The translations under genes and the position numbers were made by a program. Shown here one piece after another: positions 18,730 through 35,128 of a stretch of DNA of 64,000 nucleotides (position 1 is the stretch's first letter; each line of letters starts with the position of its first letter). This stretch comes from Propionibacteriaceae bacterium (lineage in GTDB: Bacteria > Actinomycetota > Actinomycetes > Propionibacteriales > Propionibacteriaceae), in assembly GCA_031265875.1 (NCBI GenBank), contig JAISCA010000049.1, forward strand, positions 62,001 through 126,000, given 5' to 3'. The notes beneath the pieces were generated by a model, which did no database searches, was not told the origin of the DNA, and saw nothing but the letters and a program-made list of their open reading frames with translations.

Positions 18730-20472
18730 TCAGCCGCTGTAGGCCACCGCCACCAGGCTCTGGCCGATCGACAACCACTGGTGGGTGTCCTGGTAATGCC
18801 AAGCCCCCCCTTCCTGGTCCAGCACCACCAGCTGGGTGGTTCCGGAGCGGGAAGCCGTGGCCAGACCGATCAGGGGGGCGTCGCTGGGACGGCCCAGCTC
18901 TTGCACGTCGACACCGTCCACGTCGATGAAGTAGGCCTGGCCGATGCCGCTGGGGCGAGCCGCGATGATGGCCAGAGCGGACGAACCGACCCAACTGACG
19001 TCGCTGACGGTCAAGGCGTTGGACTCCCAGAGCGGACGGATGGGCCGCCAACTGGCCAAGTCGACCACTTGACCGGACTGGCGGCGGACCTGGAGCAAAC
19101 CCAGTTCGAGCCGGCCGTCGATCTCCGCCACCACGGCCATTCGCTGACCGTCGGGCGAGAGGCAGAAACTCCGGACCTGCCGGTCGAGCAGGCCGGAGGG
19201 ACTCAGCGAGCGCACCGTCTCGCCTTGGCTCAAGTGGAGCTGGGTGGAAGCGGGCGAACTGGTCATGGCCCAGAGCTGCCCGTCGCTGCCGAATTGAGGC
19301 CGCAACAGACCGCTGCCCTCCATCACTGTCCGATCCGTGCCGGCGTCGACCAACCAGCCCCGAATGACTTGGCCGGCGGTCGCCACCGCCAGCTCTTGGC
19401 CGTCCGCCGACAGCGCCAGCCCGGCGCCGGCCTCGATCGCTCCGAAACGGAGGTCGCTCCCGGCGCTGGGCCGGCCTGGCGGCAGCGCCCCTTCCAAAGG
19501 GACCACGCCCTGAGCGTCCAACCCGTACAGCAGGGCCATCGAACCGGTCTGGACCGAGTCGTAGGACTCGATGCTACGGATGGTCAAGCGCTCGACGATG
19601 GTGCGCTGGGTGGTCTGGCCGACGGTCAAGCTGACCGCCGTGACGCTGGGCATCTGGCGCAAGGTGGCGGCGAACTGGACCGCTAGTAGGGTGGCTTGAT
19701 CGGTCGACAGCTCCAAGGCGGTGTCGTTCAAACGGATGTCGACCAGACCGCTCCCGTCCAGGCTGGGTGGGCCGTTCAGACGCAGGTCGGGCTGGACCGC
19801 GCTGGTGACGATCGGGGCCAGCCAACTGGCCGGACCGGCCAGGACCGCCTCGACGGCGCTGGCCAAACCCCAATCGCCCCGCGGCAGATAGCGCGAGTCC
19901 GGCACCAGGACGCTCCAGCTGTGATCGAAGAAATAGGCGTCGACCCTAACGAAGGTGCTGGTGAAGAGATAGTGCGACAAGGCCAGGCCGGCCGGCGGCC
20001 GGGCGATCCGCCACTCGCCGGCCTCGTTGCGGACCAGGCCGAAGTCATGCTCCCAGCGCGGGTCGGTCGAGCCGGCGAAAGCGCCGTCGACGTCGAGTCG
20101 GCCGATGATGGGCGCCGAGATGGTGACCTGGTTGTCGACCACCCGGGGCACGGCGTCGTCGCCGTAGATCAAGACCTCCGACTCCGGACTCCAGGACTGG
20201 GCGGCTTGATCGGTCAGGTAGAGCCGGGCCGTCACATAATCAGGCTCGAAGGTGGCCATGGCCAAGAGGAAACCATCCACGATGTCGGCCACGCTGGCCC
20301 CTTGGGGCGGCGGCCCCGGGGCGATGGCGACACCGCTGTCGTTCTGCCCCGAACGGCTGCGCGGCTCGGTCATGACCGGCCCGGTCACCGGGATGGCGGC
20401 GCAACCGGTCCAGAGCGACAGCGAGAGCAGAGCCGCCAGCCAGCGCCCGACGCCAGCCCGACCGCTTCTCAT
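18730..20472 (-). CDS. lpqB: Lipoprotein LpqB
   Basis: 580 residues. A signal peptide ends in the lipobox LWTGC (lipidated Cys24), then a GerMN-like region (FVRVDAYFFDHSW..., ALELSTDQATLLAVQFAATLRQM) and a C-terminal beta-propeller-like domain with repeated LxLSADGQELAVAT and FCLSPDGQRMAVVAE strands. LpqB is an outer-leaflet membrane lipoprotein that modulates the MtrAB system. Its ATG overlaps the mtrB stop (ATGA), and the order mtrA-mtrB-lpqB is invariant in actinobacteria. Confidence 0.95.
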   Translation of the reverse strand: MRSGRAGVGRWLAALLSLSLWTGCAAIPVTGPVMTEPRSRSGQNDSGVAIAPGPPPQGASVADIVDGFLLAMATFEPDYVTARLYLTDQAAQSWSPESEVLIYGDDAVPRVVDNQVTISAPIIGRLDVDGAFAGSTDPRWEHDFGLVRNEAGEWRIARPPAGLALSHYLFTSTFVRVDAYFFDHSWSVLVPDSRYLPRGDWGLASAVEAVLAGPASWLAPIVTSAVQPDLRLNGPPSLDGSGLVDIRLNDTALELSTDQATLLAVQFAATLRQMPSVTAVSLTVGQTTQRTIVERLTIRSIESYDSVQTGSMALLYGLDAQGVVPLEGALPPGRPSAGSDLRFGAIEAGAGLALSADGQELAVATAGQVIRGWLVDAGTDRTVMEGSGLLRPQFGSDGQLWAMTSSPASTQLHLSQGETVRSLSPSGLLDRQVRSFCLSPDGQRMAVVAEIDGRLELGLLQVRRQSGQVVDLASWRPIRPLWESNALTVSDVSWVGSSALAIIAARPSGIGQAYFIDVDGVDVQELGRPSDAPLIGLATASRSGTTQLVVLDQEGGAWHYQDTHQWLSIGQSLVAVAYSG

Positions 20473-22070
20473 GGCGTCTCTCTCTGATCCGGCCCGGCCG
20501 ACGACGGCGCCCGCAGATCGGCGTCCTCCGGCACCAGGGGCAAGGGCGAGGCCGTCACCGCCTGATTCGGGCGCCTCGGCAAGGTGACGCGGAACTGGGC
20601 CCCTTGACTGGGCCGGCCCCAAGCGTGGATCGAACCCCGGTGCAAGTGGACGTCCTCCTGTGAGATGGCCAGGCCCAAACCGGTGCCGCCGATATGACGG
20701 GTCCGGGCCGGGTCGGCCCGCCAGAAGCGGCTGAACAGATGCTTGGCCTGATCGGCCGAGAAGCCGACGCCGTGGTCGCGCACGGCGATGGCCACGACCT
20801 CGGAGTCGGCCCTGACCGTGACGTCGATGGGCCGGCCTTCGGAATGCTCGATGGCGTTGGACAACAGGTTGCGCACCAAGCGGGCCACCCGCCGCACATC
20901 GACCTGGGCCAGGCAGGGCCCGTCGTCGTGATGGAAGACCACGTCGGCCCCGGCCGCCCGGCTGAGCTCGGCCAGGGCTGCGATCTCGCCTGTCACCAAT
21001 TCGACCAGATCGGCCTCGTCCAAGCTGAGGACGGCCGCGCCGGCGTCGAAGCGGGAGATCTCCAACAGATCGGCCAAGAGAGACTCGAAACGGTCCAGCT
21101 CTTGGCGCAGCAGGACGACGGCCCGCTGTTCCATCTGGCCCAGGGTTTGGCGGCCGTCGTACAACAGATCGGCCGCCATCCGCACCGTGGTCAAGGGCGT
21201 GCGCAACTCATGCGAGACGTCGGACACGAAACGCTGCTGCAGGCGCGACAGTTCCTCCAATTGCCCGATCCGTAATTGCAACTGGTCGGCCATGTGGTTC
21301 ATGGACCAGGCCAAGCGGGCCAGGTCGTCGGTCCCCCGCACCGGCATCGGCTGGGTCAACTCGCCCGAGGCCAGCCGTTCGGCGGCCTGACGGGCCACCC
21401 GGATCGGCCGCAAGGTCGAGCGGGCCACGACGTAGGCCACCACCGCCATGCCGATGACGACGACGGCGGCGCTCAGTCCCAAAGCGGTGTTGACCACGCG
21501 CAGGGTCTGGGCCTCCTGGGTCATGGGGAAGACGAAATAGACCCGCAGCCTGACCTGGCCGGTCTGACCCACCACGGTCGAACCGACCGCCAAGCCGGGC
21601 GCCGACTCCGAGCCGTCCAGGTAATGCACCCGCGTCGGCATCGCATGGACTTCGGTCGGATCGGCCTCGACGGCTTCCCGTAAGGCCGCTGGGATCGAGC
21701 TGCGGTCGAGTTGGAGTTGGGGCGACAGGGCCGCCACCGGAGTCATGATCCAGATGTAGTAGCGCTGACCGACCAGGCCCCGGGGAATGGCGTCGGCCGC
21801 GATCCGGACCACCACGTCGGAAGAGGTCAACTGTTCCACCCGCGACGAGCTGAGGGCCTGCTCGATCTGGTTGAGGGCGGCGTTGGCGTCGGTCAGGGCG
21901 GCTCCCTGGGCCCGCGTCACGACGCCGCCGGTGACCGAACGGAGCAGGAAGAGACCGGCCACCAAGATGACGACCAAGGTGCCGGCGATGGCCACGGCGA
22001 CCACCCTCAGGGTCAGCGAGGAGAGCCACCAACGCAACGGCGAGGCGCCCGCGACCGACCGGTCCGGCAT
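20469..22070 (-). CDS. mtrB: Sensor histidine kinase MtrB
   Basis: 533 residues. TM1 at about 20-46 and TM2 near 195-215 flank an extracytoplasmic sensor region, followed by HAMP, the H-box VSDVSHELRTPLTTVR, an N-box LVRNLLSNAIEHS and G-boxes DHGVGF and GGTGLGLAIS. MtrB phosphorylates MtrA and links cell-wall growth, division and osmotic stress. It begins three bases after mtrA ends and overlaps lpqB by four bases. Confidence 0.96.
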   Translation of the reverse strand: MPDRSVAGASPLRWWLSSLTLRVVAVAIAGTLVVILVAGLFLLRSVTGGVVTRAQGAALTDANAALNQIEQALSSSRVEQLTSSDVVVRIAADAIPRGLVGQRYYIWIMTPVAALSPQLQLDRSSIPAALREAVEADPTEVHAMPTRVHYLDGSESAPGLAVGSTVVGQTGQVRLRVYFVFPMTQEAQTLRVVNTALGLSAAVVVIGMAVVAYVVARSTLRPIRVARQAAERLASGELTQPMPVRGTDDLARLAWSMNHMADQLQLRIGQLEELSRLQQRFVSDVSHELRTPLTTVRMAADLLYDGRQTLGQMEQRAVVLLRQELDRFESLLADLLEISRFDAGAAVLSLDEADLVELVTGEIAALAELSRAAGADVVFHHDDGPCLAQVDVRRVARLVRNLLSNAIEHSEGRPIDVTVRADSEVVAIAVRDHGVGFSADQAKHLFSRFWRADPARTRHIGGTGLGLAISQEDVHLHRGSIHAWGRPSQGAQFRVTLPRRPNQAVTASPLPLVPEDADLRAPSSAGPDQRETP

Positions 22071-22073
22071 GGC

Positions 22074-22772
22074 TCAGACGCTCCCACCGGCCCGGTAGCC
22101 GACCCCCCGCACCGTCACGACGATCTCGGGATTGTCGGCGTCGCGTTCGATCTTGGCCCGTAGCCGCTGGACGTGGACGTTGACCAGGCGAGTGTCGGCG
22201 GCGTGACGATAGCCCCAGACCTGCTGCAAGAGCTGTTCCCGGCTGAAGACGTGGTCGGGCCGACGGGCCAGGGCCAGCAGGAGATCGAACTCCAGCGGCG
22301 TCAGATTGATCGGTTGGCCGTCCCGGCGCACCTGATGGGCGCCGGCGGCGATCATGATGTCGCCCACCTTGATGGTCTCGGCCTCGCTGGGGACCGGCCG
22401 CCTCAGGCGAGTCTTGATCCGGGCCACCAACTCGCGCGGTTTGAAGGGCTTGGCGATGTAGTCGTCGGCGCCGGCCTCCAAACCGTGCACCACGTCGGCG
22501 GTGTCTGACTTAGCCGTCAGCATGACGATGGGCACGCCCGACTCGGCCCTGATGTCCCGGCAGATGTCGACCCCGTCCCGTCCCGGCAACATCAAGTCGA
22601 GCAGCACTAAGTCCGGTTGACCGACCCGGAAGGCCTCCAGAGCCTGATCGCCGTGGGCGCACCAGATGGTGTCGTAGCCGCCCCGCTTCAGCACCAATTG
22701 CAGCATCTCGGCCAACGAGGCGTCGTCGTCGACGACCAAGACACGGCTGCGTGGGCCGCTCGAATCAGTCAC
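22074..22772 (-). CDS. mtrA: Response regulator MtrA
   Basis: 232 residues. An OmpR-type receiver domain (phospho-acceptor Asp59 in LVLLDLMLPGRDG; TAKS and KPFKPREL follow) is joined to a winged-helix DNA-binding domain (FSREQLLQQVWGYRHAADTRLVNVHVQRLRAKIE). The start is a GTG with GGAAGGA upstream. A possible -10 TAGACT lies 35-40 bases upstream (plus-strand 22807-22812). The mtrA-mtrB-lpqB group is one operon; the gene upstream on the same strand is the giant surface protein, separated by a strong terminator. Confidence 0.97.
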   Translation of the reverse strand: MTDSSGPRSRVLVVDDDASLAEMLQLVLKRGGYDTIWCAHGDQALEAFRVGQPDLVLLDLMLPGRDGVDICRDIRAESGVPIVMLTAKSDTADVVHGLEAGADDYIAKPFKPRELVARIKTRLRRPVPSEAETIKVGDIMIAAGAHQVRRDGQPINLTPLEFDLLLALARRPDHVFSREQLLQQVWGYRHAADTRLVNVHVQRLRAKIERDADNPEIVVTVRGVGYRAGGSV

Positions 22773-22879: not shown

Positions 22880-25800
22880 TCAGGCGGCGGCTTTGAGCCG
22901 GCGGCGACGCCAGTCGAGCAGACCGAGACCACCGGCCAAGAGCAGGACGGCCAAGCCGGCCCAGGCCGCCGGCAAGGTCGATCCGCCGCTCGGCACGGGC
23001 GGTGGAGGCGGCGGCGGTGGAGGCGGCGGCGTCAGGACGTTCTCCAGCTCGATGGTCAGCCGGTCGCCCGGATCGACCGCGATGGGTTGGTTCAGATCGA
23101 CCGGTTCGACGGGACCGAACTGGTTGACGGCGGTCATGGCGTAGGACCAGGTGTAGCCGGTGGCCTGACCGGCGCTGGACTCGGTCACGACGCAGTACAA
23201 AGCCCGGCTGGACTGGAATTGGAGGCTGGCGCTGGCCTGACCGGGCGGCACTTCGAGGACCTGGTCCACCACCGGGGAGCCGTCGTCGCGATCGGCGCAG
23301 CGCACCGCCAACTGGGCCGGGTCGGGCCTGATCGTCTGATCGGCCGTGGTCAGCTTGGTCAGGCTGACCTGAGCCAACCGGACGTAGTGATTGGTGACCT
23401 GGTAGACCACGTCTTGGCCGGTTGTGACGACGAAGGATTCACCCAGGTCAGCCGCCGGCCCAGGCTGACCGGCCTGGCTGGCGCTCAGGCTGTACGACCA
23501 TTCGACATCCTCACCGGCTCCGTTGTCCGGCTCGGTCACCTGGCAGGTCAGATCTCCTGGAGCCGTCAGATCGAGCGAGGCCGAGGTGGCGCCGGCCGGC
23601 AAGACCACCTCTTGGTTGATCAGGGCCGTACCGGCGGCGGACTCATAGGAGCACTCGACCACCAGTCGGGCTTGGCCGGGCCGCAGGCTGTCGTCGGCCG
23701 TGGCCTGCTTGACCAAGCTGAGGCGGGCCGTCGGCTGCCACTGGTTGACCAGCTCGCAGGCGACCTCGGCCTCATCCACGGTCGGCTCGATGGTGACCGA
23801 GCTGGCGGTCTGAGAACCGGGCACGATCACCGTGCCGGGCGAACAGTTCACCTGCTCCAGCCGCCAAGAGCCCGCCGCCGTGGGCGGCGGCAGAGTCTCG
23901 GCGATGACGTATTGGTAATGCTGGCCGGCGTCGTAGTCGGTGAAGAGGAAACCATCCGGCCAGGGCAAGCCCTGACCGCTGGGCAGGGCCGGGACCGACA
24001 GGTGGGCGGCGTCCAAGCTGGCCTCGGCCCAGTAGACCCGGCCGGTCGGCGTCAGGTCCGAGTTGTCCGTCCCAGCCAACTGGGTCAGGCTGTAGTCGAA
24101 GTCGACCTGTCCGCCGGGGAAGGCGTCGGCTGTCAGCCCGGCCGGATCGATGGTCTTGATCAGGTCGATACTGCCGACCGGCTGGAACCGGTTGACCAGG
24201 GTGCAGTCGGCGTTGTCTTCCGGCGAGAGCGGCTCGCTGCTGGTGGCGGTCCAGACGTCGGCCGAGACCTGGAGGATCTCCATCGCCACCTGGCGGGTGG
24301 CGCCGCCTGAGACCGGGCCGACCTCGCAGCTAGCTTGGACCAGGCTCCACTGGCCATGGGCCAAACCGCTGGAGGCGGTGTCCTCCGTCACCCGCAGGAA
24401 CCCAGCCGGACCACCGGTCTGACTGCTGTGGGAGGCCACCTGAACCGTCGTGGTCTGGGCCACAGGTAGGTTCAGTACGGCCGTGAAGCCGCCGTCCGAG
24501 TAGTCCACGACGAAGTCGAACTCCCCGTCCTCCCCCAGGGCCTGCTTGTGCACCCGCTGGTAAGGCTCCGGCGGAGGCGGCGGCAGGGCGGAGAAGGTGT
24601 TGTCGACCACGATGTCGATGTCGTCGCCGGCTAGGACGGTGAAGGGCTGGTCCAGACCCGGTTGGGAGGTCAAGGGCAGGCCGTGGTTGGTCACCGCCAT
24701 AGTGGGCGGGTCGGCGCTGTAGCCGGCGGCGGCGCCGTCGGCCGGCTCCGTCACCAGACAGGACAGGCTGTCGCCGGGGGCCTGGAAGGACTGGCTGGCG
24801 GCGGCCAGGCCGACGGCGACCGTGACCTGACCGGACAGCCGGGTCTGACCGGACTGGCTACAGGTCAGAGCGACCTGGGCGGGCTGGTCGCGCACGGTCG
24901 GGTCGGCGCTGGTGTGCTTGGTCAACCGCAGGGCGGCCGGTGGCGGCGGCGCCTGATAGGTGTTGTCGACCTCGAAGGCGACCTGGTCGCCCAGACCGAC
25001 CGCGAAGTCCTGTCCTAGATCCGGGCTGGGGCTGACGGCCTGGCCGTTCACGGTCAGGCTGGTCTGGTAGCCGGCGGTGACGCCGCTGGCGGCCCCGGTG
25101 GCGGTCTCGTCGACCCGGCAGGTCAGCGGCGCGAAGGCCTGGAAACCGGTCGAGGTCGAACCGGCGCCCGGCGGCAGGACCAGATCTTGGCTGAAGGCCT
25201 GACCGCTGCCGGACTCGACGCACTGATAGCTCAAGACAGCCGCCCCGGAGCGCAGCGTCAGATCGTCGCTGCCCCGCTTGACGATGGTCAAGCTGCCGCT
25301 CGGGGCCTCGACCCAGCGGTTGGTGAAGGTGCAACTGGCCTCAGGCGATCCCGCCGTCAGCTCCAAGGTGACCGCAGGGCCGGAGCGGGCCACGGTCTGG
25401 CCGCCCTGGCAGGTCACGTCCGCCACCTGCCAACCGCCCACGAAGGTGGCGGCAGGCAAAGACTCGGTGATGACGTACTGGTAGCGGCTCTGCCCGGTCG
25501 TGACCTCGAAACCAGCCGGCCAACTCGCTCCCGGGGTGGCCACCACGCCGCTGTGGGCGGAGGCGTCGACGCTGGCCGCGGCGACGGAGACCTGACCGGT
25601 CGGACTGGATTGACCAGCCAGATCGACGGCGTACTGAGTGACCGAATAGGAGAAATCGGCCGGGAAGGCGTCATAGGCCACCAGACCGGCCGGGTCGACC
25701 GTCTTGACCAATTGGATCTGACCGGCCGGAGTGAACTGATTGGTCACCAGGCAGTCGGCGGCGTCGCCTAGCCCCAGAGGCTGACTGGTCTGGGCCGTCC

Positions 25801-28800
25801 ACTGGTTAGATCCAGCCGGTCCAGGGCTGACCGTCATGGCTTGCTGCCAGACGCTGCCATCGGGCCGGGTGACCTGGCAGGACCCACCGGTCAAGGTCCA
25901 GACGCCGCCGGCGGCGGCCGGGTCCGGGACCGTCTCGGTCAAGCTGATGGAACCGGGCTGGTCGCTCCAGCCCGAGGCCACGGCGACGGCGGCGGCCGGG
26001 CCAGCCGTGACGGAGGCCAGGCTGAGCGGGGTCAAACCGGGCAGGTCGAGGTCGTAGGAGAAGACCCCGGAGCCGCCCAAGGCCAGCTTCCTGATCTGGC
26101 GCTGCGGCAACTGGTCGAAATCATTGCTGACGGCGAAGACGACGCTTTGGCCGGGGACGACCGTGAAAGCCTGACCCAGTTCGACTGGGGAGACCTGACC
26201 GGTCTGGTCGGTCAATTGGGCGCTGACCCTAGGCGCGTAGGCCGGCGCGGCCCCCGAGTCAGGCTCGGTCACCTGACAGGTCAGAGTCTGATCGGACAAG
26301 AAGACCTGGCTGGCCGAGGTTTGGCCGGGCGCGACTGTGACGGCGCCGTCGATCAAGGGCAGGTCAGCCGCGTCGACGCAACTGAGCGCCAACTGGGCCG
26401 GATCGGGCCGAGCCGTCAGGTCGCCCGTGGTGGCCTTGCTGACGGTGACCTGGGCCGGCGGAGTGTAGCCATTGGTGACCGTGAAAGTGACCTGGTCGCC
26501 CAAGGCGACGTCGAAGTCCTCGCCCAAGGCGGGGCTGGGCACGACCGGCTGACCGTTCAAGACCATGTCGACGGTGGCGCTCTGGCCGACCTGGGGACCG
26601 GCTCCGGTGGCCGTCTCGGTCACCTGACAGGTCAGGGCGGCGAAGCTCTGGAAGCCGGTCGAGACGCTGGCCTGACCGGCCGGTAGGACCAGGCTCTGGC
26701 TGAAGGTGACGGGCTGGCCTTGGACGATCTCGGTGCATTGGTAGTCCAAGATGGCCGAGCCCGGTCGCAAACCGGTGTCGACACTGCCGATCTTGACCAG
26801 GCTGAGGCTGGCGACCGGGGCTTCGACCCACTGGTTGGTGAAGGTGCAATCGGTCTCCGGCTGGCTGGCGGTCAGCTCGACCGTCACCGCCGGGCCTGAC
26901 TGCCAGTCCGTGACCGGCTGCGCGCCGGCACAGCTGACCGCTGAGACATGCCAGGCCCCCAGCACCGTCGGAGCCGGCAGGACCTCGCTGATGACGTACT
27001 GGTAACGCCCGCCGCTGGCGGTCGTGACCTCGAAACCGGCCGGCCAACCGCTGTCCGGTTGGACCGGTTGATCGCTCAGATGGTCGGCCGTCATCTCGAC
27101 GCTGGCGCTGGCCGCTAGGCCGGTGGCGCTGGTCTGCCCCGACCCGTCGACGGCGTACTGAGTCACGTTGTAGCTGAATTGGGCCGGCAGGGCGTCGTCT
27201 GGCGCCAGGCCGTCCGGGCTGACGGTCTTGTGCAATTGGATCCGCCCGGCCGGGGTGAACTGGTTGACCAAGAGACAGTCGGCCGCCGCGCCCGCCGGCA
27301 GGTCCTGGCTGGTTAGGGCCGTCCACTGGTTGGAACCGGGCCCAGGCGTCAGCGTCAATTCCAGCGCGCTGACGGCGCCGCTAGCGTCGGTCACCTGGCA
27401 GGAGGCCGTCTGGGCCGTCCAAACGCCACCGGCCACAGCCGGGTCCGGCACGGTCTCGACGATCTGGAGGGGGCCGGCGGCCTGACTCCAATTCGTCGCC
27501 ACCAGACCGGTGGCGCCTGAGGCCAGACTCAGGCCAGTCACACTCTGGGCCTGGCTCTGACCGGGCCAAGCGATCTCGAAGTCGAATTGGCCGGCGCCAC
27601 CCAGGGCTTGCTTCGAGACCTGCCGCCGGGGCAGGTTCTGGAACTGGTTGGCGACGGTGAAGGTCAATTGGTCGCCTCGGGCCACGGCGAAGGCCTGCCC
27701 CAAGCTGATCGGCTGGACGCCGCCTGACCCGTCGCGCAACTCGGCGCTGGCGCTGACGGCGTACGCCTGGCCTTGGCCGCCGCTGGCTTCGGTCACGACG
27801 CAAGACATCGGTTGATCGGCCTGGAACAGGTGCTGGTCCTGGGACAGCCCCGGGGCCACCTCGACCGTGCCGTCGACCAGAGTCTGACCGTCTCCATCTT
27901 GGCAATCGACATTCAAGATGGCCCGTTCCGGCCGGATCGTCTGGTCGGCGCTGGTCAGCTTGACCACCGTCACCTGGGCCGGTGGCGGCGGCGTGTAGTA
28001 GTTGTTCAGTTCGACCCTGATGTCATCGCCTTGGCTGACCGGGAAGTCCCAGTTGAGGTCGAGCGACGCTCCCGGCAGACCGTGGTTGGTCAAGGCCAAG
28101 CGATAGTCCCAGGTCACGCCGCTGGCCGGATCGGCCCCATTGTTCGATTGCAATTCCTGGACCTGGCAGATCAGATCGGTCACGCTGGTGAAGCTGATCG
28201 AAGCGCTGTCCCGCCCTTCCGGCAGGACCAACTCCCGCCGGGTGGCAGCCCCGGAGGCGGCGTCCCGACAGACCAAGTCGACCAGGGCCGGATTCGGCCG
28301 CAGAGCCAGATCCAAGGTGGCGGTCTTGACCAGGCTGAGGCTGGCGGCCGGCACCCAGCGATTGACGAACTGGCAGTCGGCCACCGGGGTGGCGGCGCTC
28401 AATTCGATGACGGCGGTGGCGCCCGTGACCGAGCTGAGAACGGCGCCCGGCTGGCAGGTCACAGCCTCGACCTGCCAGGCCCCGGCCGCGGTCGGAGCCG
28501 GCAGGCTCTCGCTGATCTGGTACTGGTAAGTCGTGGTCTGATCGGAGACTGGGAAACCCTCCGGCCAGGGCAGGCCGCTGGCGCCGGGTTGGATCGGCAC
28601 AGCGGTCAAGCCCAGGCTGGGATCGGGCAGCGCCACCTGGCCGGAGTAGATCCGCCCGGTCGGAGCCAGGGCGCCGCCGCGGGGACCGGACAATTGGGTG
28701 ATGCTGTAGTCGAACTGGGCCGGCAATCCGGCCGCCGGATCGGGCCCGGTCTGATCGGCCGTCTTGGTCAAATTGATCCGGCCGGCCGGCGTGAAGGTGT

Positions 28801-31800
28801 TGACCAGAGTGCAATCAGCTTGCTCGGTCGGAGCCAACTGATCTGGGCTGGTGGCGCTCCAGTGCCTGAGGTCGGCTGAATCTTGCTCGATGGTCAAGTC
28901 CACGGTCCAGCTGGAGCCGCCCGTGATCGAGCGCACCAGGCAGCTGGCCCCGGTCAGACTCCACTGGCCGGTGTCAGACTCCGGCATGATCTCGTCCAAG
29001 CTGATCAGGCCGGACTCTTCGACGATGGCCTCCGGCTGGCTGACGACCACCTCGACCGGTTGGCCGGGAGCGATCTGACCGGTCGTCTGGTCGAACTGCC
29101 AAGGCACGTCAGTCGCGGGGAACTCACCGCTGATCTGGAAGCTGCCCTGAGCCCCCACCGTCTGCTTCAGCACCCGTCGGGTCGGCGCTGGGGCGTAATT
29201 GTTGCCGACGGTGAACTCGACCGACTGGCCCCGGCCGATCTGGAAGGGCTGGCCCAGGTTGAGCCCGACCAAGGCGGGGCCGTCCGGCAACAGACGACCC
29301 GTCACCTGAGCGTAGTTCAAGGCCAGGCCCGGGCCGGTCCCGTCGACCAGCTCGGTCACGACGCAGGAGACCGGCTCGGAGCCGGGATCGAAATCGGCCC
29401 CGGTCGCGGTCTGACCGCTGGGCGGGGCCCAGGTCAAGGAGCCGTCCAGCACGGTCTGGCCCGACTGGTTGGAGCAGACCACACCCAGGACCGGCGCGGT
29501 GGCCGGTTGGTAGGTTCCGATCACGTCCTTGACCAGACGCAGGTGAGTCGGCTCGGGCGTGTAGACGTTGTCCACCGTCACGACCACTTGTTGGCCTTCT
29601 ACGACGGTGAAGCTGGCCGAGAAGGGATCGCTCCCGCTATCGGGCAGGGGGGACTCAACTCCGTCGACGGAGATCCTGGCACTGGCCGAGGCGATGACGC
29701 CGTCACCCGCCCCGGTGGCGCCACCCTGGTCCGGGTCCTCCGTCACGGTGCACTGCAAGGTGGGATAGCCGCTCTGGAAGGAGATCGAGCCCTGCGGCAC
29801 ACCCGCCGCCACGGTCACACTGGTCCCGAACAGGGTGTCATACGGCTGGTCCGCCTGACAGATCAGGACCAGCTCGGCCGCCTCCGGCCGCAAGGAGGTG
29901 TCGGCCGTGGCCGTCTTGACCACAGTCAAGGTGGCGGCCTGGAGCCAGGTGTTGGTGAAGGTGCAATTAGCGCTGGCGATATCTTCAGTCAACTCGATCG
30001 TGACGCTACCGCCATCCAGGTCGGCGTCGCCGACCTGGGCCGAGCCGCAATCCACCCCTGACAGCCGCCACTGACCGGCCGCCGTCGGGGCAGGGGCGGT
30101 CTCGCTGATGACATAGCGGTAGACCGGTCCACCGGTCAGGCTGACGGGGAAGCCCTCCGGCCAGCTCGGGTCGGCCGGGCCGGGGACGGCTTTGGGATCG
30201 TTGGGGTCGGTCGGGCCGGTCTCGGCCCGGGCCGTCCAGCTGCGGCCGGTCGGAGCCAGCTGGTCAGCCGCCGGGCCCGACTGCTGGACGACGGAGAAGC
30301 TGAAATCAGCCTTGCCGCCGGGGTAGGCGTCGTCGGCCAAGCTGGGGTCGTTCAACACCGTGTTCTTGGCGATTTGGATGCGCCCGGCCGGCACGAACTG
30401 ATTGACGATGTGGCAGTCGACACTGTCTTCCCAGGCAAAGACATCGTCTCCGCTATAGATCTGCTCCGGGTAGACACTGGTTTGCTTGAGCAGTTCAACC
30501 ACCGTGGTCGAACCTTCATGCTGGACCTCGCAATAGGCCCGGCTGGCCCGCCAAACACCGCTGGTCGAGCTGGGCAGGGTCTCGGTCAGGCGGACGTCGA
30601 AGGCGGCTGGTGGGGAGTCCGGCCAGTCCTCCTGGTCGATCTGACCGATCAGGGCCTGGCTGCCGTCCGACACCGCCAGGCCGGTCTGGCTGACGGGCAA
30701 CCATTCGCCGTCCTGCCCGACCTCGGCTGTGATGTCGAAGGACCCGTCGGCCCCTTGGGCCTCTTTCCAGAAACGCCAAGGCGTGGCGGAGGGCTGGGGC
30801 CGGACGATGTTGTTGACGGCCACGATCACGTTGTCGCCGGGATTGAGCGAGAAAGGCTGTCCCAAGACCAGCGGCACGACTTCAGTGGTCGATCCGATGA
30901 CACCGCTGAGGCTGGCCTGGGTGACGACCTCGTAGCCTGACTCGACGCCGCTGGCGGGCTCGGTCACGACGCAGGTGACGGGATAGTGGGCCTGGTACTG
31001 AGCGGTGTTGGCGGCCCGCCCGGACGCCACCAGCAGGTCGCCGCCCACGGCCGGGTAGTCGGAAGGGCTGACGCAGTTCAGGTTGAGCTGAGCCGGGGCC
31101 GGCCTGAGAGCGCTGTCGGACACGGTCTGCTTGGTCAAACCGATCTGGACCGTGGGAGCGCTGTAGGTGTTGTCGACCGTGAAGACCACGTCGTCGCCCA
31201 GGGCGACGGTGAAGGGCTCATCCAGTGCAGGTGTCCAACTGACCGGTTGGCCGTGGTTGGTGGCCGACAGGCTGACCCCGGGTGTGACGTAAGCCGGCGC
31301 CCCGGTGGCCTGTTCGGTCACAGTGCAGGTGGTGTCGGCGCCGACCTGGAATTGATCCGAGCCAGTGCTTTGACCTGACTCCACCTCGATGTCCTGAGCG
31401 AAGATGACGGCGGGTTGGCCGGACAGCGTGTACTCACAGCGGTACTCGATGATGGCCGAGCCGGTTCTGAGCGAGCTGTCGTCGGTGGCGTTCTTGACGA
31501 TGGTCAGTTTCGCCCCCGCCACCCACTGATTGGTGAACTGGCAGTCCACCACGGGCTGGGCCGCCGTCGGTTCGACGGTGACCGAGCCGGCCGCCAGGTC
31601 GGTCGCGACCGTCGGGGCGGCGCAACTGATGTCGCCGACCCGCCAGACCCCGGCGGCCTGGCCCGGCGGGGTCTGCTCGGTGATGACGTATTGGTACCGG
31701 GTCTGGGTGGTGCTGACCGGGAATCCGGCCGGCCAAGCCCCCGCGGGCAAGGCTGAGACCTGCTGATGGGCGCTGGGAGTGGTCCGGGCCGAGGCCGTCC

Positions 31801-34800
31801 AAGACTGTCCGGTGGGGGCCAGTTCAGACTCCGGATCGGTCAGGTCTTGGGCCCACTGGACCACGTTGTAGCCGAAGACGGCGCCGCCTTGATAGAAGGC
31901 GTCGTCTGGGACCAGACCGGCCTCGTCCACCGTCTTGGTCAGATCGATCCGCCCGGCCGGGGTGAAAGCGTTGGTCAAGTCACAGCTCACATTGTCGGTC
32001 GGCTCCAGCAGCTGGTCGCCCGAGTCAGCCAGCCAACGGTTGGGTTGCCCAGAGTCTTGAGTCAGGTTCAGAGTCATCTGACGACTAGCCCCGCTGGTCA
32101 TGGCGCTGACCTGGCAGACCGCCGCGGTCAACTGCCAGACGCCCCCGGCCTGAGCCGGGTCGGGCACGGTCTCGCTCAACTGGATGGCGCCAGCCGCGGT
32201 CACCGGCAGTCCGCTCAACTGGACCACGGCCTCCGTGCCGTCGGCTGGGACTTCGACTGTCTGATCGACCTTGTCTTGACCGGGGAATTCGATCTGGAAG
32301 TCGAAGCTGGCCTGAGGTCCGTCCACTCCCTTCCAAACCGAGCGCTCCGGCAGTGGGGCGAAGTCATTGTCGACCGTGGCCACCACGACATCGCCCCGTT
32401 CGACAGTGAAGGGCTGGCCCAGCCCGACTGGGGGATCGGGCGTCCAAGGCTGGCCGTTCTTGGTCAGGCTGAGCCGGGCCGAGGGCTGCCATGGCGCGCT
32501 CTGGCCGGCCGCCGGCTCGTCGATCTGACAGGTCAGGGGCTGGTCGTAGGGCGGGTCGCCGTACTGGTAGGTCTGGGTCAGGCTGGACTCGCCCGCCGGC
32601 ACGCTCAGGGCGTCGTCTATGACGGTGGCCCCAGCGGCCTGACAGGTCAGGCTGAGCTGGGCCGGGTCCGGCCGGATCGAACGGTCGGCGGTGGTGTTCT
32701 TGACCAGACTGAGGCTGGCCGGCGGCGGCGCCGTGTAACTGTTGACGGCGGTGATGACGACCTCGTCGCCCAGATCGATCCCGATGGGCTGGTCCAGTGC
32801 GATGGCCGGACCGGGCTGGCCATGGTTGGTCATGGACAGTGCGACCGACCAGTCGACTCCGGGGTTGGCGCCGCTTTGTTCTTCCGGCTCGGACAACTGA
32901 CAGGTCAAAGGCAGGGTGCTGCCGAACTCGGTGTCGGCCTGGCCCAGACCGGCCGCGACGGTGACGCTATTGCCGAACAAGACATCGCCGTCGCCGTCGA
33001 CCTCGTCCCGGTAGGCGCAGAAGAAGTCGAGTTGGGCCGGGGCGCCCCTCAGATCGGTGTCGGAGCTGGCCTGTTTGACGATGGTGACCAAGGCCAACGG
33101 CAGCCAGCGGTTGGTGAAGGTGCAGCTGACGTCGGGGATGGCGCTGGTCAGCTCGAATTCGACGGTGGTCTGGCCTTGGCTGGAGGCCACCGGCTGACCG
33201 GTGGTCCGGTCGACGCATTGGGCCGAAACGACCTGCCAGTTGCCGCGGGCCGTCGGGGCCGGCGTCGACTCCTCGATGACGTAGTGGTAGCGCGGCGCCC
33301 CGGACGGGTCGGAGACCAGGAAACCATCGGGCCAGGGCGAGGCGGTGGAGTCAGGTTGGGCCGCCACGGCCTGGCCGACCTGGCTCGGAGTGACGGCGGC
33401 GGTCAGACCGTAGGTGGCCAGCACGGCGTTGGCCTGGGGCTGGGGCAGGACCAACTGTTGCAGGACGGTGTACGCGAAATCGGCTTGGACGGTCCCGTCC
33501 TGGGCCGGCTGGAAGGCGTCGGCCACGACTAGGCCATCGGCTAGGACCTGTTTGTTGACGGCGATCTGACCGGCCGGGCTGAAGGTGTTGGTGATTAAAC
33601 AATCAGCATTTTCAGTGGCGGTCAGAGCTCTAGACAGCTGGGCCGTGAAAGAACCGTCCTGCCCCTGACTGATGGTCATGGGCACCGACACCGCCGTGCT
33701 CAGATCGGGGTTCGGCCCATTGGTGACGGCGCAATTGCCCTGGGCCAGGGTCCAAGTCCCGTCGCTGACCGGCACTTGCTCGGTCACACTGATGAGACCG
33801 GCGTGGGCGGCCACGCTACCGGTCCGCTCCCGGACCAGTTGTGAGGTGCCATCGTCGGTCACGGTCACATCGTCGACGTCGATAGGGGCCTCGCCCGGGA
33901 AAGTGACCTCGAAATCGAATTCGCCGTCTGAGCCGATGACCTCCTTCCACAGCCGCCGGAAAGGAAAGTTCGTAGGCTCCGGACCGGGAGCCTGGCGGGC
34001 GTTGGTGTAGGTGCAGACCACGCTCTGACCGGCCCCGGTCAGAGTCACCGTGGTGGGATCGAGGCCGCTGGTGCGGTGGGTGTCGCCGGCGTCGTTGCTG
34101 AAGACGGCCTGACCGCCGCCCGAGGTGGTGCAGACCGGTGAGTCGGGGGTCAGCCAGTCGGCCGTGGTGGGCAGGGTCTCTTGGAAGGACCAGGCGGTGC
34201 CGACGGCCCGCACGAAGCTCTGCGAGACGATCTGGCCCGGCTTGGTCGCGGTCAGAGAGAAGTCGTTAGTGCCGTCGCCGTTGCTGTCGGCGTAGGAGAT
34301 GTCACCGTCGAAACGGAAGACGCCTTGACCGATGGTGTCGGCGGCCAGGACTTTCTGCACGGTGATGGTGCCGGCGTCGACATGGTGGCCGATGGCGTAG
34401 TAATAGCAGTAGACGTGGCGTGAGCCACTGTTGAAAGCCACTTTCTCCACGTTGTCGCCGTTGACGGCGTCGTAGGCGCAGCGCAGGGCGGCGAAGGAGA
34501 GCTCCGGATAGTACCCGGTGGTGTCGACCGGGCGGGGATCGGTCGGTTTGCCGCCTTGGGCCCACAGGCTGCCGCGCTGGGCGGTCGTGGTCTCGCGGTC
34601 CAAGGTCACAGTCACGGCGCCGGGGACGGTGTTGCTGCCGACCGGGCGGCCCTGGCTGTCCAACTGGGGCACCGAGTCGACCGTGGTGACGGTGGCGGTG
34701 GCGCCGGAGACATAACTCAAGTAGTAGCTGGCCACGGTCTTCGAGACCATGCCCGAGCCGATCGTGAACTGGAGTCCCGGCAGGGGGCGGCAGTGGTCGG

Positions 34801-35128
34801 CGCTCATGCCCGCGTTCTCCGGACCCGGTTCGACCGCGTTGCCGGCCTGATATTTCGAATCGGGGCCGAGGTCTTGCAGTGACTCTTGGATGTTGTTCCG
34901 GGCCCGGTTGGCCTGAACGTCCGAGTAGTCGTCGCAGACCACGCCGACGAAGGTGACGGACAAAGATCCGGTGGGCGGTCGCGGGTTGACCTGGGCCGCC
35001 TCGGCTTGGGGCAAGACCGCCGAGGGCCCCAAACCGACCCCGGTCAGAACCAGACCGAGCACCGCCGCTCCCAAAGTCAGCCGCCGCCCGACTCCCCCAG
35101 TCCGCGTCGTCCGTTGCTCCAGACTCAT
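22880..35128 (-). CDS. Giant secreted multi-module surface protein (28 DUF5979/CnaB-like modules)
   Basis: 4082 residues from the ATG at 35128, which has a perfect AAGGAGG seven bases upstream. Residues 1-44 are a signal peptide (cleavage expected after Ala44). A non-repetitive head (45 to about 390) holds several Cys and a prealbumin/SpaA-like segment near its end. Residues about 390-4031 are seven tandem super-repeats of 510-540 residues, each made of four modules A-B-C-D, 28 in total. Each module has Lys in the first strand, Glu in the middle, Asn in the last strand and a Cys pair. A Pro11 run, then LPAAW, a hydrophobic stretch and RRRR end the protein. This is the design of a rigid, isopeptide-stabilised surface stalk such as an adhesin or S-layer-like fibre. 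No sortase or pilus gene is nearby. Ligand unknown. Confidence 0.9.
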   Translation of the reverse strand: MSLEQRTTRTGGVGRRLTLGAAVLGLVLTGVGLGPSAVLPQAEAAQVNPRPPTGSLSVTFVGVVCDDYSDVQANRARNNIQESLQDLGPDSKYQAGNAVEPGPENAGMSADHCRPLPGLQFTIGSGMVSKTVASYYLSYVSGATATVTTVDSVPQLDSQGRPVGSNTVPGAVTVTLDRETTTAQRGSLWAQGGKPTDPRPVDTTGYYPELSFAALRCAYDAVNGDNVEKVAFNSGSRHVYCYYYAIGHHVDAGTITVQKVLAADTIGQGVFRFDGDISYADSNGDGTNDFSLTATKPGQIVSQSFVRAVGTAWSFQETLPTTADWLTPDSPVCTTSGGGQAVFSNDAGDTHRTSGLDPTTVTLTGAGQSVVCTYTNARQAPGPEPTNFPFRRLWKEVIGSDGEFDFEVTFPGEAPIDVDDVTVTDDGTSQLVRERTGSVAAHAGLISVTEQVPVSDGTWTLAQGNCAVTNGPNPDLSTAVSVPMTISQGQDGSFTAQLSRALTATENADCLITNTFSPAGQIAVNKQVLADGLVVADAFQPAQDGTVQADFAYTVLQQLVLPQPQANAVLATYGLTAAVTPSQVGQAVAAQPDSTASPWPDGFLVSDPSGAPRYHYVIEESTPAPTARGNWQVVSAQCVDRTTGQPVASSQGQTTVEFELTSAIPDVSCTFTNRWLPLALVTIVKQASSDTDLRGAPAQLDFFCAYRDEVDGDGDVLFGNSVTVAAGLGQADTEFGSTLPLTCQLSEPEEQSGANPGVDWSVALSMTNHGQPGPAIALDQPIGIDLGDEVVITAVNSYTAPPPASLSLVKNTTADRSIRPDPAQLSLTCQAAGATVIDDALSVPAGESSLTQTYQYGDPPYDQPLTCQIDEPAAGQSAPWQPSARLSLTKNGQPWTPDPPVGLGQPFTVERGDVVVATVDNDFAPLPERSVWKGVDGPQASFDFQIEFPGQDKVDQTVEVPADGTEAVVQLSGLPVTAAGAIQLSETVPDPAQAGGVWQLTAAVCQVSAMTSGASRQMTLNLTQDSGQPNRWLADSGDQLLEPTDNVSCDLTNAFTPAGRIDLTKTVDEAGLVPDDAFYQGGAVFGYNVVQWAQDLTDPESELAPTGQSWTASARTTPSAHQQVSALPAGAWPAGFPVSTTQTRYQYVITEQTPPGQAAGVWRVGDISCAAPTVATDLAAGSVTVEPTAAQPVVDCQFTNQWVAGAKLTIVKNATDDSSLRTGSAIIEYRCEYTLSGQPAVIFAQDIEVESGQSTGSDQFQVGADTTCTVTEQATGAPAYVTPGVSLSATNHGQPVSWTPALDEPFTVALGDDVVFTVDNTYSAPTVQIGLTKQTVSDSALRPAPAQLNLNCVSPSDYPAVGGDLLVASGRAANTAQYQAHYPVTCVVTEPASGVESGYEVVTQASLSGVIGSTTEVVPLVLGQPFSLNPGDNVIVAVNNIVRPQPSATPWRFWKEAQGADGSFDITAEVGQDGEWLPVSQTGLAVSDGSQALIGQIDQEDWPDSPPAAFDVRLTETLPSSTSGVWRASRAYCEVQHEGSTTVVELLKQTSVYPEQIYSGDDVFAWEDSVDCHIVNQFVPAGRIQIAKNTVLNDPSLADDAYPGGKADFSFSVVQQSGPAADQLAPTGRSWTARAETGPTDPNDPKAVPGPADPSWPEGFPVSLTGGPVYRYVISETAPAPTAAGQWRLSGVDCGSAQVGDADLDGGSVTIELTEDIASANCTFTNTWLQAATLTVVKTATADTSLRPEAAELVLICQADQPYDTLFGTSVTVAAGVPQGSISFQSGYPTLQCTVTEDPDQGGATGAGDGVIASASARISVDGVESPLPDSGSDPFSASFTVVEGQQVVVTVDNVYTPEPTHLRLVKDVIGTYQPATAPVLGVVCSNQSGQTVLDGSLTWAPPSGQTATGADFDPGSEPVSCVVTELVDGTGPGLALNYAQVTGRLLPDGPALVGLNLGQPFQIGRGQSVEFTVGNNYAPAPTRRVLKQTVGAQGSFQISGEFPATDVPWQFDQTTGQIAPGQPVEVVVSQPEAIVEESGLISLDEIMPESDTGQWSLTGASCLVRSITGGSSWTVDLTIEQDSADLRHWSATSPDQLAPTEQADCTLVNTFTPAGRINLTKTADQTGPDPAAGLPAQFDYSITQLSGPRGGALAPTGRIYSGQVALPDPSLGLTAVPIQPGASGLPWPEGFPVSDQTTTYQYQISESLPAPTAAGAWQVEAVTCQPGAVLSSVTGATAVIELSAATPVADCQFVNRWVPAASLSLVKTATLDLALRPNPALVDLVCRDAASGAATRRELVLPEGRDSASISFTSVTDLICQVQELQSNNGADPASGVTWDYRLALTNHGLPGASLDLNWDFPVSQGDDIRVELNNYYTPPPPAQVTVVKLTSADQTIRPERAILNVDCQDGDGQTLVDGTVEVAPGLSQDQHLFQADQPMSCVVTEASGGQGQAYAVSASAELRDGSGGVQPISLGQAFAVARGDQLTFTVANQFQNLPRRQVSKQALGGAGQFDFEIAWPGQSQAQSVTGLSLASGATGLVATNWSQAAGPLQIVETVPDPAVAGGVWTAQTASCQVTDASGAVSALELTLTPGPGSNQWTALTSQDLPAGAAADCLLVNQFTPAGRIQLHKTVSPDGLAPDDALPAQFSYNVTQYAVDGSGQTSATGLAASASVEMTADHLSDQPVQPDSGWPAGFEVTTASGGRYQYVISEVLPAPTVLGAWHVSAVSCAGAQPVTDWQSGPAVTVELTASQPETDCTFTNQWVEAPVASLSLVKIGSVDTGLRPGSAILDYQCTEIVQGQPVTFSQSLVLPAGQASVSTGFQSFAALTCQVTETATGAGPQVGQSATVDMVLNGQPVVPSPALGEDFDVALGDQVTFTVTNGYTPPAQVTVSKATTGDLTARPDPAQLALSCVDAADLPLIDGAVTVAPGQTSASQVFLSDQTLTCQVTEPDSGAAPAYAPRVSAQLTDQTGQVSPVELGQAFTVVPGQSVVFAVSNDFDQLPQRQIRKLALGGSGVFSYDLDLPGLTPLSLASVTAGPAAAVAVASGWSDQPGSISLTETVPDPAAAGGVWTLTGGSCQVTRPDGSVWQQAMTVSPGPAGSNQWTAQTSQPLGLGDAADCLVTNQFTPAGQIQLVKTVDPAGLVAYDAFPADFSYSVTQYAVDLAGQSSPTGQVSVAAASVDASAHSGVVATPGASWPAGFEVTTGQSRYQYVITESLPAATFVGGWQVADVTCQGGQTVARSGPAVTLELTAGSPEASCTFTNRWVEAPSGSLTIVKRGSDDLTLRSGAAVLSYQCVESGSGQAFSQDLVLPPGAGSTSTGFQAFAPLTCRVDETATGAASGVTAGYQTSLTVNGQAVSPSPDLGQDFAVGLGDQVAFEVDNTYQAPPPPAALRLTKHTSADPTVRDQPAQVALTCSQSGQTRLSGQVTVAVGLAAASQSFQAPGDSLSCLVTEPADGAAAGYSADPPTMAVTNHGLPLTSQPGLDQPFTVLAGDDIDIVVDNTFSALPPPPPEPYQRVHKQALGEDGEFDFVVDYSDGGFTAVLNLPVAQTTTVQVASHSSQTGGPAGFLRVTEDTASSGLAHGQWSLVQASCEVGPVSGGATRQVAMEILQVSADVWTATSSEPLSPEDNADCTLVNRFQPVGSIDLIKTIDPAGLTADAFPGGQVDFDYSLTQLAGTDNSDLTPTGRVYWAEASLDAAHLSVPALPSGQGLPWPDGFLFTDYDAGQHYQYVIAETLPPPTAAGSWRLEQVNCSPGTVIVPGSQTASSVTIEPTVDEAEVACELVNQWQPTARLSLVKQATADDSLRPGQARLVVECSYESAAGTALINQEVVLPAGATSASLDLTAPGDLTCQVTEPDNGAGEDVEWSYSLSASQAGQPGPAADLGESFVVTTGQDVVYQVTNHYVRLAQVSLTKLTTADQTIRPDPAQLAVRCADRDDGSPVVDQVLEVPPGQASASLQFQSSRALYCVVTESSAGQATGYTWSYAMTAVNQFGPVEPVDLNQPIAVDPGDRLTIELENVLTPPPPPPPPPPPVPSGGSTLPAAWAGLAVLLLAGGLGLLDWRRRRLKAAA
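23035..24568 (-). repeat. Super-repeat 7 of 7
   Basis: Residues about 3521-4031. Modules open QRVHKQALG (A), GSIDLIKTI (B), RLSLVKQAT (C) and QVSLTKLTT (D). It runs into the Pro11 spacer and C-terminal anchor. Confidence 0.85.
24569..26110 (-). repeat. Super-repeat 6 of 7
   Basis: Residues about 3007-3520. Modules open RQIRKLALG (A), GQIQLVKTV (B), SLTIVKRGS (C) and ALRLTKHTS (D). Confidence 0.85.
26111..27635 (-). repeat. Super-repeat 5 of 7
   Basis: Residues about 2499-3006. Modules open RQVSKQALG (A), GRIQLHKTV (B), SLSLVKIGS (C) and QVTVSKATT (D). At protein level it is the closest relative of super-repeat 6 (shared SYxVTQYAVD and PAGxIQLxKTV). Confidence 0.85.
27636..29185 (-). repeat. 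Super-repeat 4 of 7
   Basis: Residues about 1982-2498. Modules open RRVLKQTVG (A), GRINLTKTA (B), SLSLVKTAT (C) and QVTVVKLTS (D). Confidence 0.85.
29186..30795 (-). repeat. Super-repeat 3 of 7
   Basis: Residues about 1445-1981. Modules open WRFWKEAQG (A), GRIQIAKNT (B), TLTVVKTAT (C) and HLRLVKDVI (D); the D module has lost the usual D-xx-xRP motif. Confidence 0.83.
30796..32350 (-). repeat. Super-repeat 2 of 7
   Basis: Residues about 927-1444. Modules open RSVWKGVDG (A), GRIDLTKTV (B), KLTIVKNAT (C) and QIGLTKQTV (D). Confidence 0.85.
32351..33965 (-). repeat. Super-repeat 1 of 7 (modules A-B-C-D)
   Basis: Residues about 389-926 of the giant protein. Module A opens RRLWKEVIGSDGEFDFEV, B opens GQIAVNKQV, C opens LVTIVKQAS, D opens LSLVKNTTADRSIRP. 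Boundaries are approximate. Confidence 0.85.

What the first reader, a model, noticed from the sequence alone, without database searches (positions are those of the whole stretch)
23035..33965. All 28 modules carry a Lys/Glu/Asn triad and two Cys
By eye each module has Lys in its first strand (LVKxAT, LTKTV, KQALG), Glu at the centre (VTEP, SETVP, ISExLP) and Asn in the last strand (TVxNxY, CTFTNRW, LVNxF). In CnaB domains these three residues form an autocatalytic Lys-Asn isopeptide bond. Each module also has a Cys pair (for example LxCQ...LTCQVTE, or SCQV...ADCLVTN). If both form, every module would be doubly locked by an isopeptide and a disulfide, which is unusual.
Basis: partly seen in the sequence, partly recalled or inferred. 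Interest (0 to 1): 0.82.

Follow-up and report, generated by a model that had tools for sequence, protein, structure and literature searches.

The report
Giant surface protein with cross-linked domains
An actinobacterium encodes a 4,082-residue surface fibre built from seven copies of a four-domain block, and every domain carries the residues for two internal covalent locks; both kinds of lock are already known in bacterial adhesins, so this is a striking but recognisable example.

Summary
One minus-strand gene (22880-35128, 4,082 aa) holds seven copies of a four-module block A-B-C-D. All 28 modules carry Lys, Glu, Asn and two Cys at fixed alignment columns (7 of 7 in each type), and a 29th module just outside the given range has them too. 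A genus-mate ortholog (72% identical) keeps 28/28 Lys, 28/28 Glu, 27/28 Asn (the other is Asp) and 62/62 Cys. In 45 shorter relatives the triad is kept or lost as a unit while the Cys stay. AlphaFold (pLDDT 95) gives four beta-sandwiches with Lys in the first strand and Asn in the last; the best solved matches are isopeptide pilins and the Mobiluncus giant adhesin. So internal Lys-Asn isopeptide bonds plus disulfides are very likely. No coordinates were available, so no distance was measured. The claim that a double lock is unusual fails: modules match SpaA_4 and DUF5979, both published isopeptide families, and 41.3% of actinomycetotal isopeptide domains are predicted to have a disulfide (PMC12617251). 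New detail: two disulfide designs, with one Cys always four residues before either Asn (A, B) or Glu (C, D).

The parts
22880..35128 (-). CDS of the giant surface protein, 4,082 aa from ATG (frame open upstream to 35185)
   Evidence: NG86 dN 0.21, dS 0.55 against the ortholog
34997..35128 (-). signal peptide (basic start, hydrophobic core, A-E-A cleavage-like end)
   Evidence: sequence; read by eye, no predictor run
34376..34996 (-). HEAD domain, 207 aa, 4 conserved Cys, no Pfam family (0 of 39 relatives match)
33968..34375 (-).
32354..33967 (-). superunit 1 (modules A 33575-33967, B 33098-33574, C 32723-33097, D 32354-32722)
30788..32353 (-). superunit 2 (A 31958-32353, B 31517-31957, C 31154-31516, D 30788-31153)
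29189..30787 (-). superunit 3 (A 30389-30787, B 29939-30388, C 29552-29938, D 29189-29551)
27635..29188 (-). superunit 4 (A 28787-29188, B 28349-28786, C 27983-28348, D 27635-27982)
26111..27634 (-). superunit 5 (A 27251-27634, B 26816-27250, C 26459-26815, D 26111-26458); the one folded by AlphaFold2
24569..26110 (-). superunit 6 (A 25727-26110, B 25301-25726, C 24941-25300, D 24569-24940)
22997..24568 (-). superunit 7 (A 24179-24568, B 23732-24178, C 23378-23731, D 22997-23377; the last part of D's span is the proline linker)
22883..23038 (-). C-terminal proline linker, hydrophobic membrane segment and RRRR tail; no LPxTG-like motif

Best explanation
The gene encodes a membrane-attached fibrillar surface protein, most likely an adhesin stalk. 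After export, each of its 29 Ig-like (CnaB-type) modules folds and autocatalytically joins the Lys of its first strand to the Asn of its last strand, with the Glu as proton shuttle, and a thiol oxidase joins its two Cys. The A and B modules (and M0) place the disulfide between a middle strand and the last strand, with the second Cys exactly four residues before the bonded Asn. The C and D modules place it between strands 2 and 5, with the second Cys exactly four residues before the catalytic Glu. The result is a long stalk in which every bead is covalently closed at two places, so pulling or proteases cannot easily unravel it, holding an uncatalogued N-terminal HEAD domain away from the cell. 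The array grew by duplicating a block of an ancestral short protein, HEAD-M0-A-B-C, that is widespread in Actinomycetota. Shown: the sequence pattern, its conservation, the coupled loss, the predicted fold and strand positions. Inferred: bond formation, oxidation, stalk mechanics, adhesion.
For: K/E/N and CC 7 of 7 in each of four types. Ortholog keeps 83 of 84 triad residues, the exception being Asn to Asp, the other residue known to bond with Lys (FimP C-domain); 62 of 62 Cys kept. In 45 other head proteins, of 154 module slots with both Cys, 140 have the full triad (Asn or Asp), 10 have lost all three residues and 4 are partial; loss of Lys and Glu is coupled (Fisher p = 7e-15, not corrected for relatedness). 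Where Lys and Glu are present and Asn is not, the residue is Asp in 16 of 19, against 8 of 33 Asn substitutions at non-triad sites in the ortholog pair. AlphaFold2 of superunit 5: pLDDT 95.2; in all four modules Lys lies in the first strand and Asn in the last. Solved matches: S. pyogenes major pilin 6n0a Z 10.6 (200 aligned, rmsd 8.2, modules C-D) and Mobiluncus adhesin 5u5o Z 10.0 (114 aligned, rmsd 2.9, module B). Pfam SpaA_4 and DUF5979, both listed as isopeptide families in PMC12617251. Own genome has four places matching Thioredoxin_4, the family that I recall as holding DsbA/MdbA-like oxidases.
Against: No bond has been observed; the structure tool gave no coordinates, so no Lys-Asn or Cys-Cys distance was measured. 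A full triad does not guarantee a bond: the FimP N-domain has all three residues and none forms in the crystal (PMC3485203). The one B module listed scores below the SpaA_4 cut-off (20.1 vs 27.3 bits). No VKOR partner was found in the genome. The C-terminus lacks a sortase motif, which 18 of 42 relatives checked have.
Confidence: 0.78

Rival explanations
1. Only some of the modules form the isopeptide bond; in the others the triad is a buried non-covalent Lys-Glu-Asn hydrogen-bond network and the disulfide alone locks the module.
For: FimP N-domain has the triad without a bond in the crystal; 10 of 154 module slots in relatives drop the whole triad but keep both Cys, so the fold tolerates lacking the bond.
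Against: All 28 modules keep all three residues, and the only change in the ortholog is Asn to Asp; a hydrogen-bond network should tolerate more substitutions.
Confidence: 0.2
2. The cysteines are not disulfides but bind metal or remain free.
For: No VKOR hit in the genome.
Against: Exactly two Cys per module in 28 of 28, 62 of 62 conserved in the ortholog; two Cys per domain is a poor metal site; exported protein with Thioredoxin_4 proteins in the genome; disulfides are common in this domain class.
Confidence: 0.05
3. The protein is a structural sheath or length spacer, or a pilin-like building block, and not an adhesin.
For: HEAD resembles N-terminal domains of shaft pilins (2y1v Z 8.6, 133 aligned, rmsd 3.6; 4hss Z 8.6, 107 aligned, rmsd 3.1) and has no known binding domain.
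Against: A single-chain array with a conserved N-terminal domain and a C-terminal membrane segment is the usual fibrillar adhesin layout; no LPxTG motif, which sortase polymerisation would need. HEAD Z values are near those expected for common folds.
Confidence: 0.25

Closest known systems
Mobiluncus mulieris giant adhesin (7,651 aa, 51 Ig-like domains; PDB 5u5o/5u6f; PMC10619420)
   Same: Actinomycetotal single-chain giant, tandem Ig-like domains, isopeptide domain 47I that also has a disulfide linking strands 2 and 5 with Cys6895 four residues before Glu6899, as in modules C and D here.
   Different: Mixes 18 ester-bond and 33 isopeptide domains and ends in LPxTG; here all 29 modules carry an isopeptide triad plus a Cys pair, 28 of them in a strict ABCD x7 order, without LPxTG. 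Profile search with module B finds no PDB chain by sequence.
SpaA_4 (PF24514) and DUF5979 (PF19407) isopeptide domains
   Same: A modules match SpaA_4, C and D match DUF5979; Lys and Asn fall at the domain positions of the published triads.
   Different: The published survey used AlphaFold DB entries, capped at 1,280 aa, so it could not have held this chain; B modules are only weakly covered.
Actinomyces FimP/FimA and Corynebacterium SpaA/SpaD shaft pilins
   Same: CnaB domains with isopeptide bonds, some with a disulfide in the same domain.
   Different: Sortase-polymerised short subunits; here one long chain.
HEAD-M0-A-B-C proteins of Actinomycetota (loci L042-L087)
   Same: Same HEAD and same module order, triad and Cys pairs.
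   Different: 43 complete frames have a median of 774 aa and a maximum of 1,022 aa; only the window protein and its genus-mate ortholog are expanded sevenfold.

Membership tests
CnaB-type intramolecular isopeptide domains (SpaA_4, DUF5979) | sequence match to the curated family | tested here: met
   whole protein SpaA_4 2.3e-49 and DUF5979 2.4e-33; at E<=0.01: A 6/7 SpaA_4, B 6/7 SpaA_4 (listed member below cut-off), C 5/7 and D 6/7 DUF5979
CnaB-type intramolecular isopeptide domains (SpaA_4, DUF5979) | Lys in first strand, catalytic Glu in a middle strand, Asn/Asp in last strand | tested here: met
   7/7 per type; strand positions on a pLDDT 95 model, the Glu of D lying one residue past its strand
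CnaB-type intramolecular isopeptide domains (SpaA_4, DUF5979) | the covalent Lys-Asn bond exists | not testable with these tools
   needs mass spectrometry or a solved structure
CnaB-type intramolecular isopeptide domains (SpaA_4, DUF5979) | Lys, Glu and Asn side chains converge | not testable with these tools
   the prediction tool returned no coordinates
Giant cross-linked adhesins (Mobiluncus type) | single chain with many tandem cross-linkable Ig-like domains | tested here: met
   29 modules in 4,082 aa
Giant cross-linked adhesins (Mobiluncus type) | C-terminal LPxTG-type sortase motif | tested here: not met
   no L[PAS]x[TS]G in the last 80 residues
Giant cross-linked adhesins (Mobiluncus type) | ester-bond domains | not tested
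   Pfam scan of the whole chain lists only SpaA_4 and DUF5979 above cut-off; no ester-domain motif search was run
Thioester (TED/TIE) adhesins | N-terminal thioester domain | tested here: inconclusive
   HEAD matches no Pfam family; best folds are pilin N-terminal domains at Z 8.6; four invariant Cys suggest disulfides instead

The most novel reading that the evidence does not exclude
This is a stalk in which every one of 29 beads is double-locked, using two alternating designs (AB, then CD) whose disulfide is register-locked to the isopeptide: the second Cys sits exactly four residues, an even spacing that puts both on the same face of one strand, before the bonded Asn in A/B or before the catalytic Glu in C/D (28 of 28). 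The pairing may couple the two reactions, the disulfide aligning the strand so that the isopeptide forms, or may place the unfolding-proof regions differently in alternate beads. Relatives that lost the triad but kept the Cys are natural single-lock controls.
Probability: 0.3. Interest if true: 0.6.

Novelty: new member of a known kind. Interest (0 to 1): 0.4.

Why it matters
It extends the few known giant cross-linked adhesins to a Propionibacteriaceae lineage and gives a clean series in which the two locks can be separated: four module types, two disulfide layouts, and natural modules that lost the whole triad but kept the disulfide. That would let one ask what each lock adds to folding, mechanical strength and protease resistance. 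It also points to an uncatalogued HEAD domain shared across Actinomycetota. The basic finding, isopeptide plus disulfide in actinobacterial Ig-like domains, is already in print.

Tried and rejected
Lysine rarity as evidence: rejected, because seven neighbour ORFs also have only 0-3% Lys. Sequence search of the PDB with the whole protein, module B and module C gave no credible relative. Profile comparison supports C with D (probability 99.9) and A with B over the C-terminal half (94.7), but A with C (21) and B with C (2.8) are not supported by sequence; common ancestry of all four rests on fold and on the triad. Attempt to measure distances: no model file is laid in the box. A DNA search for an LPxTG-like pattern was uninformative (3 matches, 4.8 expected). 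A first tally of B modules used the neighbouring Glu and was corrected by one residue. In one search missing letters for B Lys and A Asn reflect local alignments that stop short and were not used as losses. An alignment of all 29 modules together did not bring the Glu into one column. NCBIfam gave no match. VKOR was not found.

Dropped rows: of 51 head loci, L049 (masked) and L088-L091 (fragments) were left out of the tally, and L041 is the ortholog, leaving 45. Of 180 module slots in these, 26 lack both Cys in the alignment, mostly because the module is absent or the contig ends. Several of the 10 triad losses are close pairs (L060/L065, L066/L073), so they are fewer than 10 events. In one search the sortase count used 42 loci, dropping open, masked or fragmentary ones. 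In the structure job 33 rows and in the HEAD job 39 rows were used, all from the window or from related-loci loci.

Papers: PMC12617251, PMC3485203 and PMC10619420 were read as passages, the last also as outline and abstract; PMC9974433 and PMC5478893 were seen only as a search listing with abstract starts. Searches behind the statement that I found no earlier report of this protein. The names mtrA, mtrB and lpqB for the neighbours, and the DsbA/MdbA reading of Thioredoxin_4, are recalled.
Full report
WHAT IS THERE. The range lies in one gene on the minus strand, 22880-35128 from its ATG (frame open to 35185), 4,082 aa. Reading from the N-terminus: a signal peptide (by eye), a 207-aa HEAD, a module M0, then 28 modules in the order A-B-C-D repeated seven times, a proline linker, a hydrophobic segment and an RRRR tail. 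The ortholog in a genus-mate genome has the same layout, 4,079 aa; that genome's contig (73,045 bases) has the same length as GenBank JAIRYW010000033.1, Propionibacteriaceae bacterium Gsp477_bin63, so the window is very likely from that family.

THE OBSERVATION. Lys, Glu, Asn and two Cys are identical in 7 of 7 modules of each of the four types (positions). In the ortholog, 72% identical over 4,062 aligned residues, the triad keeps 28/28 Lys, 28/28 Glu and 27/28 Asn, the exception being Asp in the C module of superunit 4, and 62/62 Cys are kept; other Lys, Glu and Asn are kept 9/13, 52/119 and 38/71.

TWO LOCK DESIGNS. In A and B the second Cys is exactly four residues before the Asn in 14 of 14; in C and D it is exactly four residues before the Glu in 14 of 14, and the first Cys follows the Lys by 19 residues in 13 of 14 and 18 in one. 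M0 is of the A/B design. On the AlphaFold2 model of superunit 5 (508 aa, 33 sequences, mean pLDDT 95.2, pTM 0.79), Lys is in the first strand and Asn in the last strand of every module; Glu is in a middle strand (in D one residue after it); the A/B Cys lie in the strand after the Glu strand and in the last strand; the C/D Cys lie in strands 2 and 5, counting in module C. That is the strand pair of the disulfide in Mobiluncus domain 47I, where the paper names Cys6895 and Glu6899, again four apart (PMC10619420, passages). The tool gave no coordinates, so no distance was measured.

FOLD. The best solved matches of the superunit are S. pyogenes major pilins (6n0a Z 10.6, 200 aligned, rmsd 8.2, C-D) and the Mobiluncus adhesin with disulfide, isopeptide and ester links (5u5o Z 10.0, 114 aligned, rmsd 2.9, B). 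Pfam gives SpaA_4 and DUF5979. PMC12617251 lists both as isopeptide families with triads Lys704/Glu766/Asn814 in a SpaA_4 domain 700-816 and Lys610/Glu680/Asn715 in a DUF5979 domain 606-718 (passages). Assuming no gap near the ends of the Pfam alignments, Lys is the 5th position (modules A and D) and Asn the 3rd from last (SpaA_4, module A) or 4th from last (DUF5979, modules C and D) both there and here.

NATURAL EXPERIMENTS. The HEAD occurs in 6 of 296 genomes of the class, in 2 of 147 of the family, both giants of one genus, and in 51 loci of genome contigs across Actinomycetota. The relatives are short, 43 complete frames with median 774 and maximum 1,022 aa, and run HEAD-M0-A-B-C or a part of it. 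In 45 of them, 154 of 180 module slots have both Cys; 140 have a full triad counting Asp for Asn, 10 have lost all three (9 B, 1 C), 3 lack only Asn/Asp and 1 lacks only Lys. With Lys and Glu present, the residue replacing Asn is Asp in 16 of 19, against 8 of 33 at other Asn sites in the ortholog pair (p = 4e-5; the two sets differ in divergence). Thus the triad behaves as one unit with the chemistry of an isopeptide bond, and the disulfide can stand without it. The tests ignore relatedness; some losses are shared by close relatives.

ORIGIN. Each superunit is 66-77% identical to the ortholog at the same place in the genus mate but 30-53% to the others, and the tree pairs them with support 1.0. 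The seven blocks existed before the two genomes split and have not been homogenised. Full superunits occur in 2 of 57 genomes searched, counting G000 itself; four more had weak partial matches. The gene lies just upstream of a response regulator, a histidine kinase and an LpqB-like gene on the same strand, and the regulator and kinase are next to it in the genus mate too.

MECHANISM AND LIMITS. The best reading is a membrane-attached fibrillar stalk whose beads are each closed by an autocatalytic Lys-Asn bond and a disulfide. The genome has Thioredoxin_4 proteins (4 matches) and five sortase matches, but no VKOR match. The protein lacks a sortase motif, so a membrane anchor is more likely than cell-wall attachment. 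Against: a triad need not react, as in the FimP N-domain. What I have not found in print, in searches, is a chain with both sets of residues in every one of its modules, but those searches cover open-access papers only.

HEAD. AlphaFold2 gives pLDDT 86.4; matches are N-terminal domains of shaft pilins at Z 8.6, close to the level of common folds; Foldseek gives no match below E 0.001. 0 of 39 HEAD sequences match a Pfam family.

Noticed in passing
window 34376-34996: HEAD domain with 22 invariant columns in 39 relatives, including four Cys, matches no Pfam family although it occurs across Actinomycetota.
   Followed up: partly
G000:C66, locus L099 236-18169: The same genome has a second giant ORF of 5,977 aa with a C-terminal membrane segment; none of the A-D module profiles match it.
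   Followed up: partly
window 18730-22772: Response regulator, HAMP histidine kinase and LpqB-like protein directly downstream on the same strand (names mtrA, mtrB, lpqB recalled), the first two conserved beside the giant gene in the genus mate.
   Followed up: partly
L033 781-10611: Another genus mate (G004) has a different 3,276-aa surface ORF with many short Lys...CTATN repeats that also look like CnaB-type modules with Cys pairs (by eye).
   Followed up: no
loci L056, L058, L060, L065, L066, L073, L079, L083, L086: B modules that have lost Lys, Glu and Asn together but keep both Cys: natural single-lock modules.
   Followed up: partly
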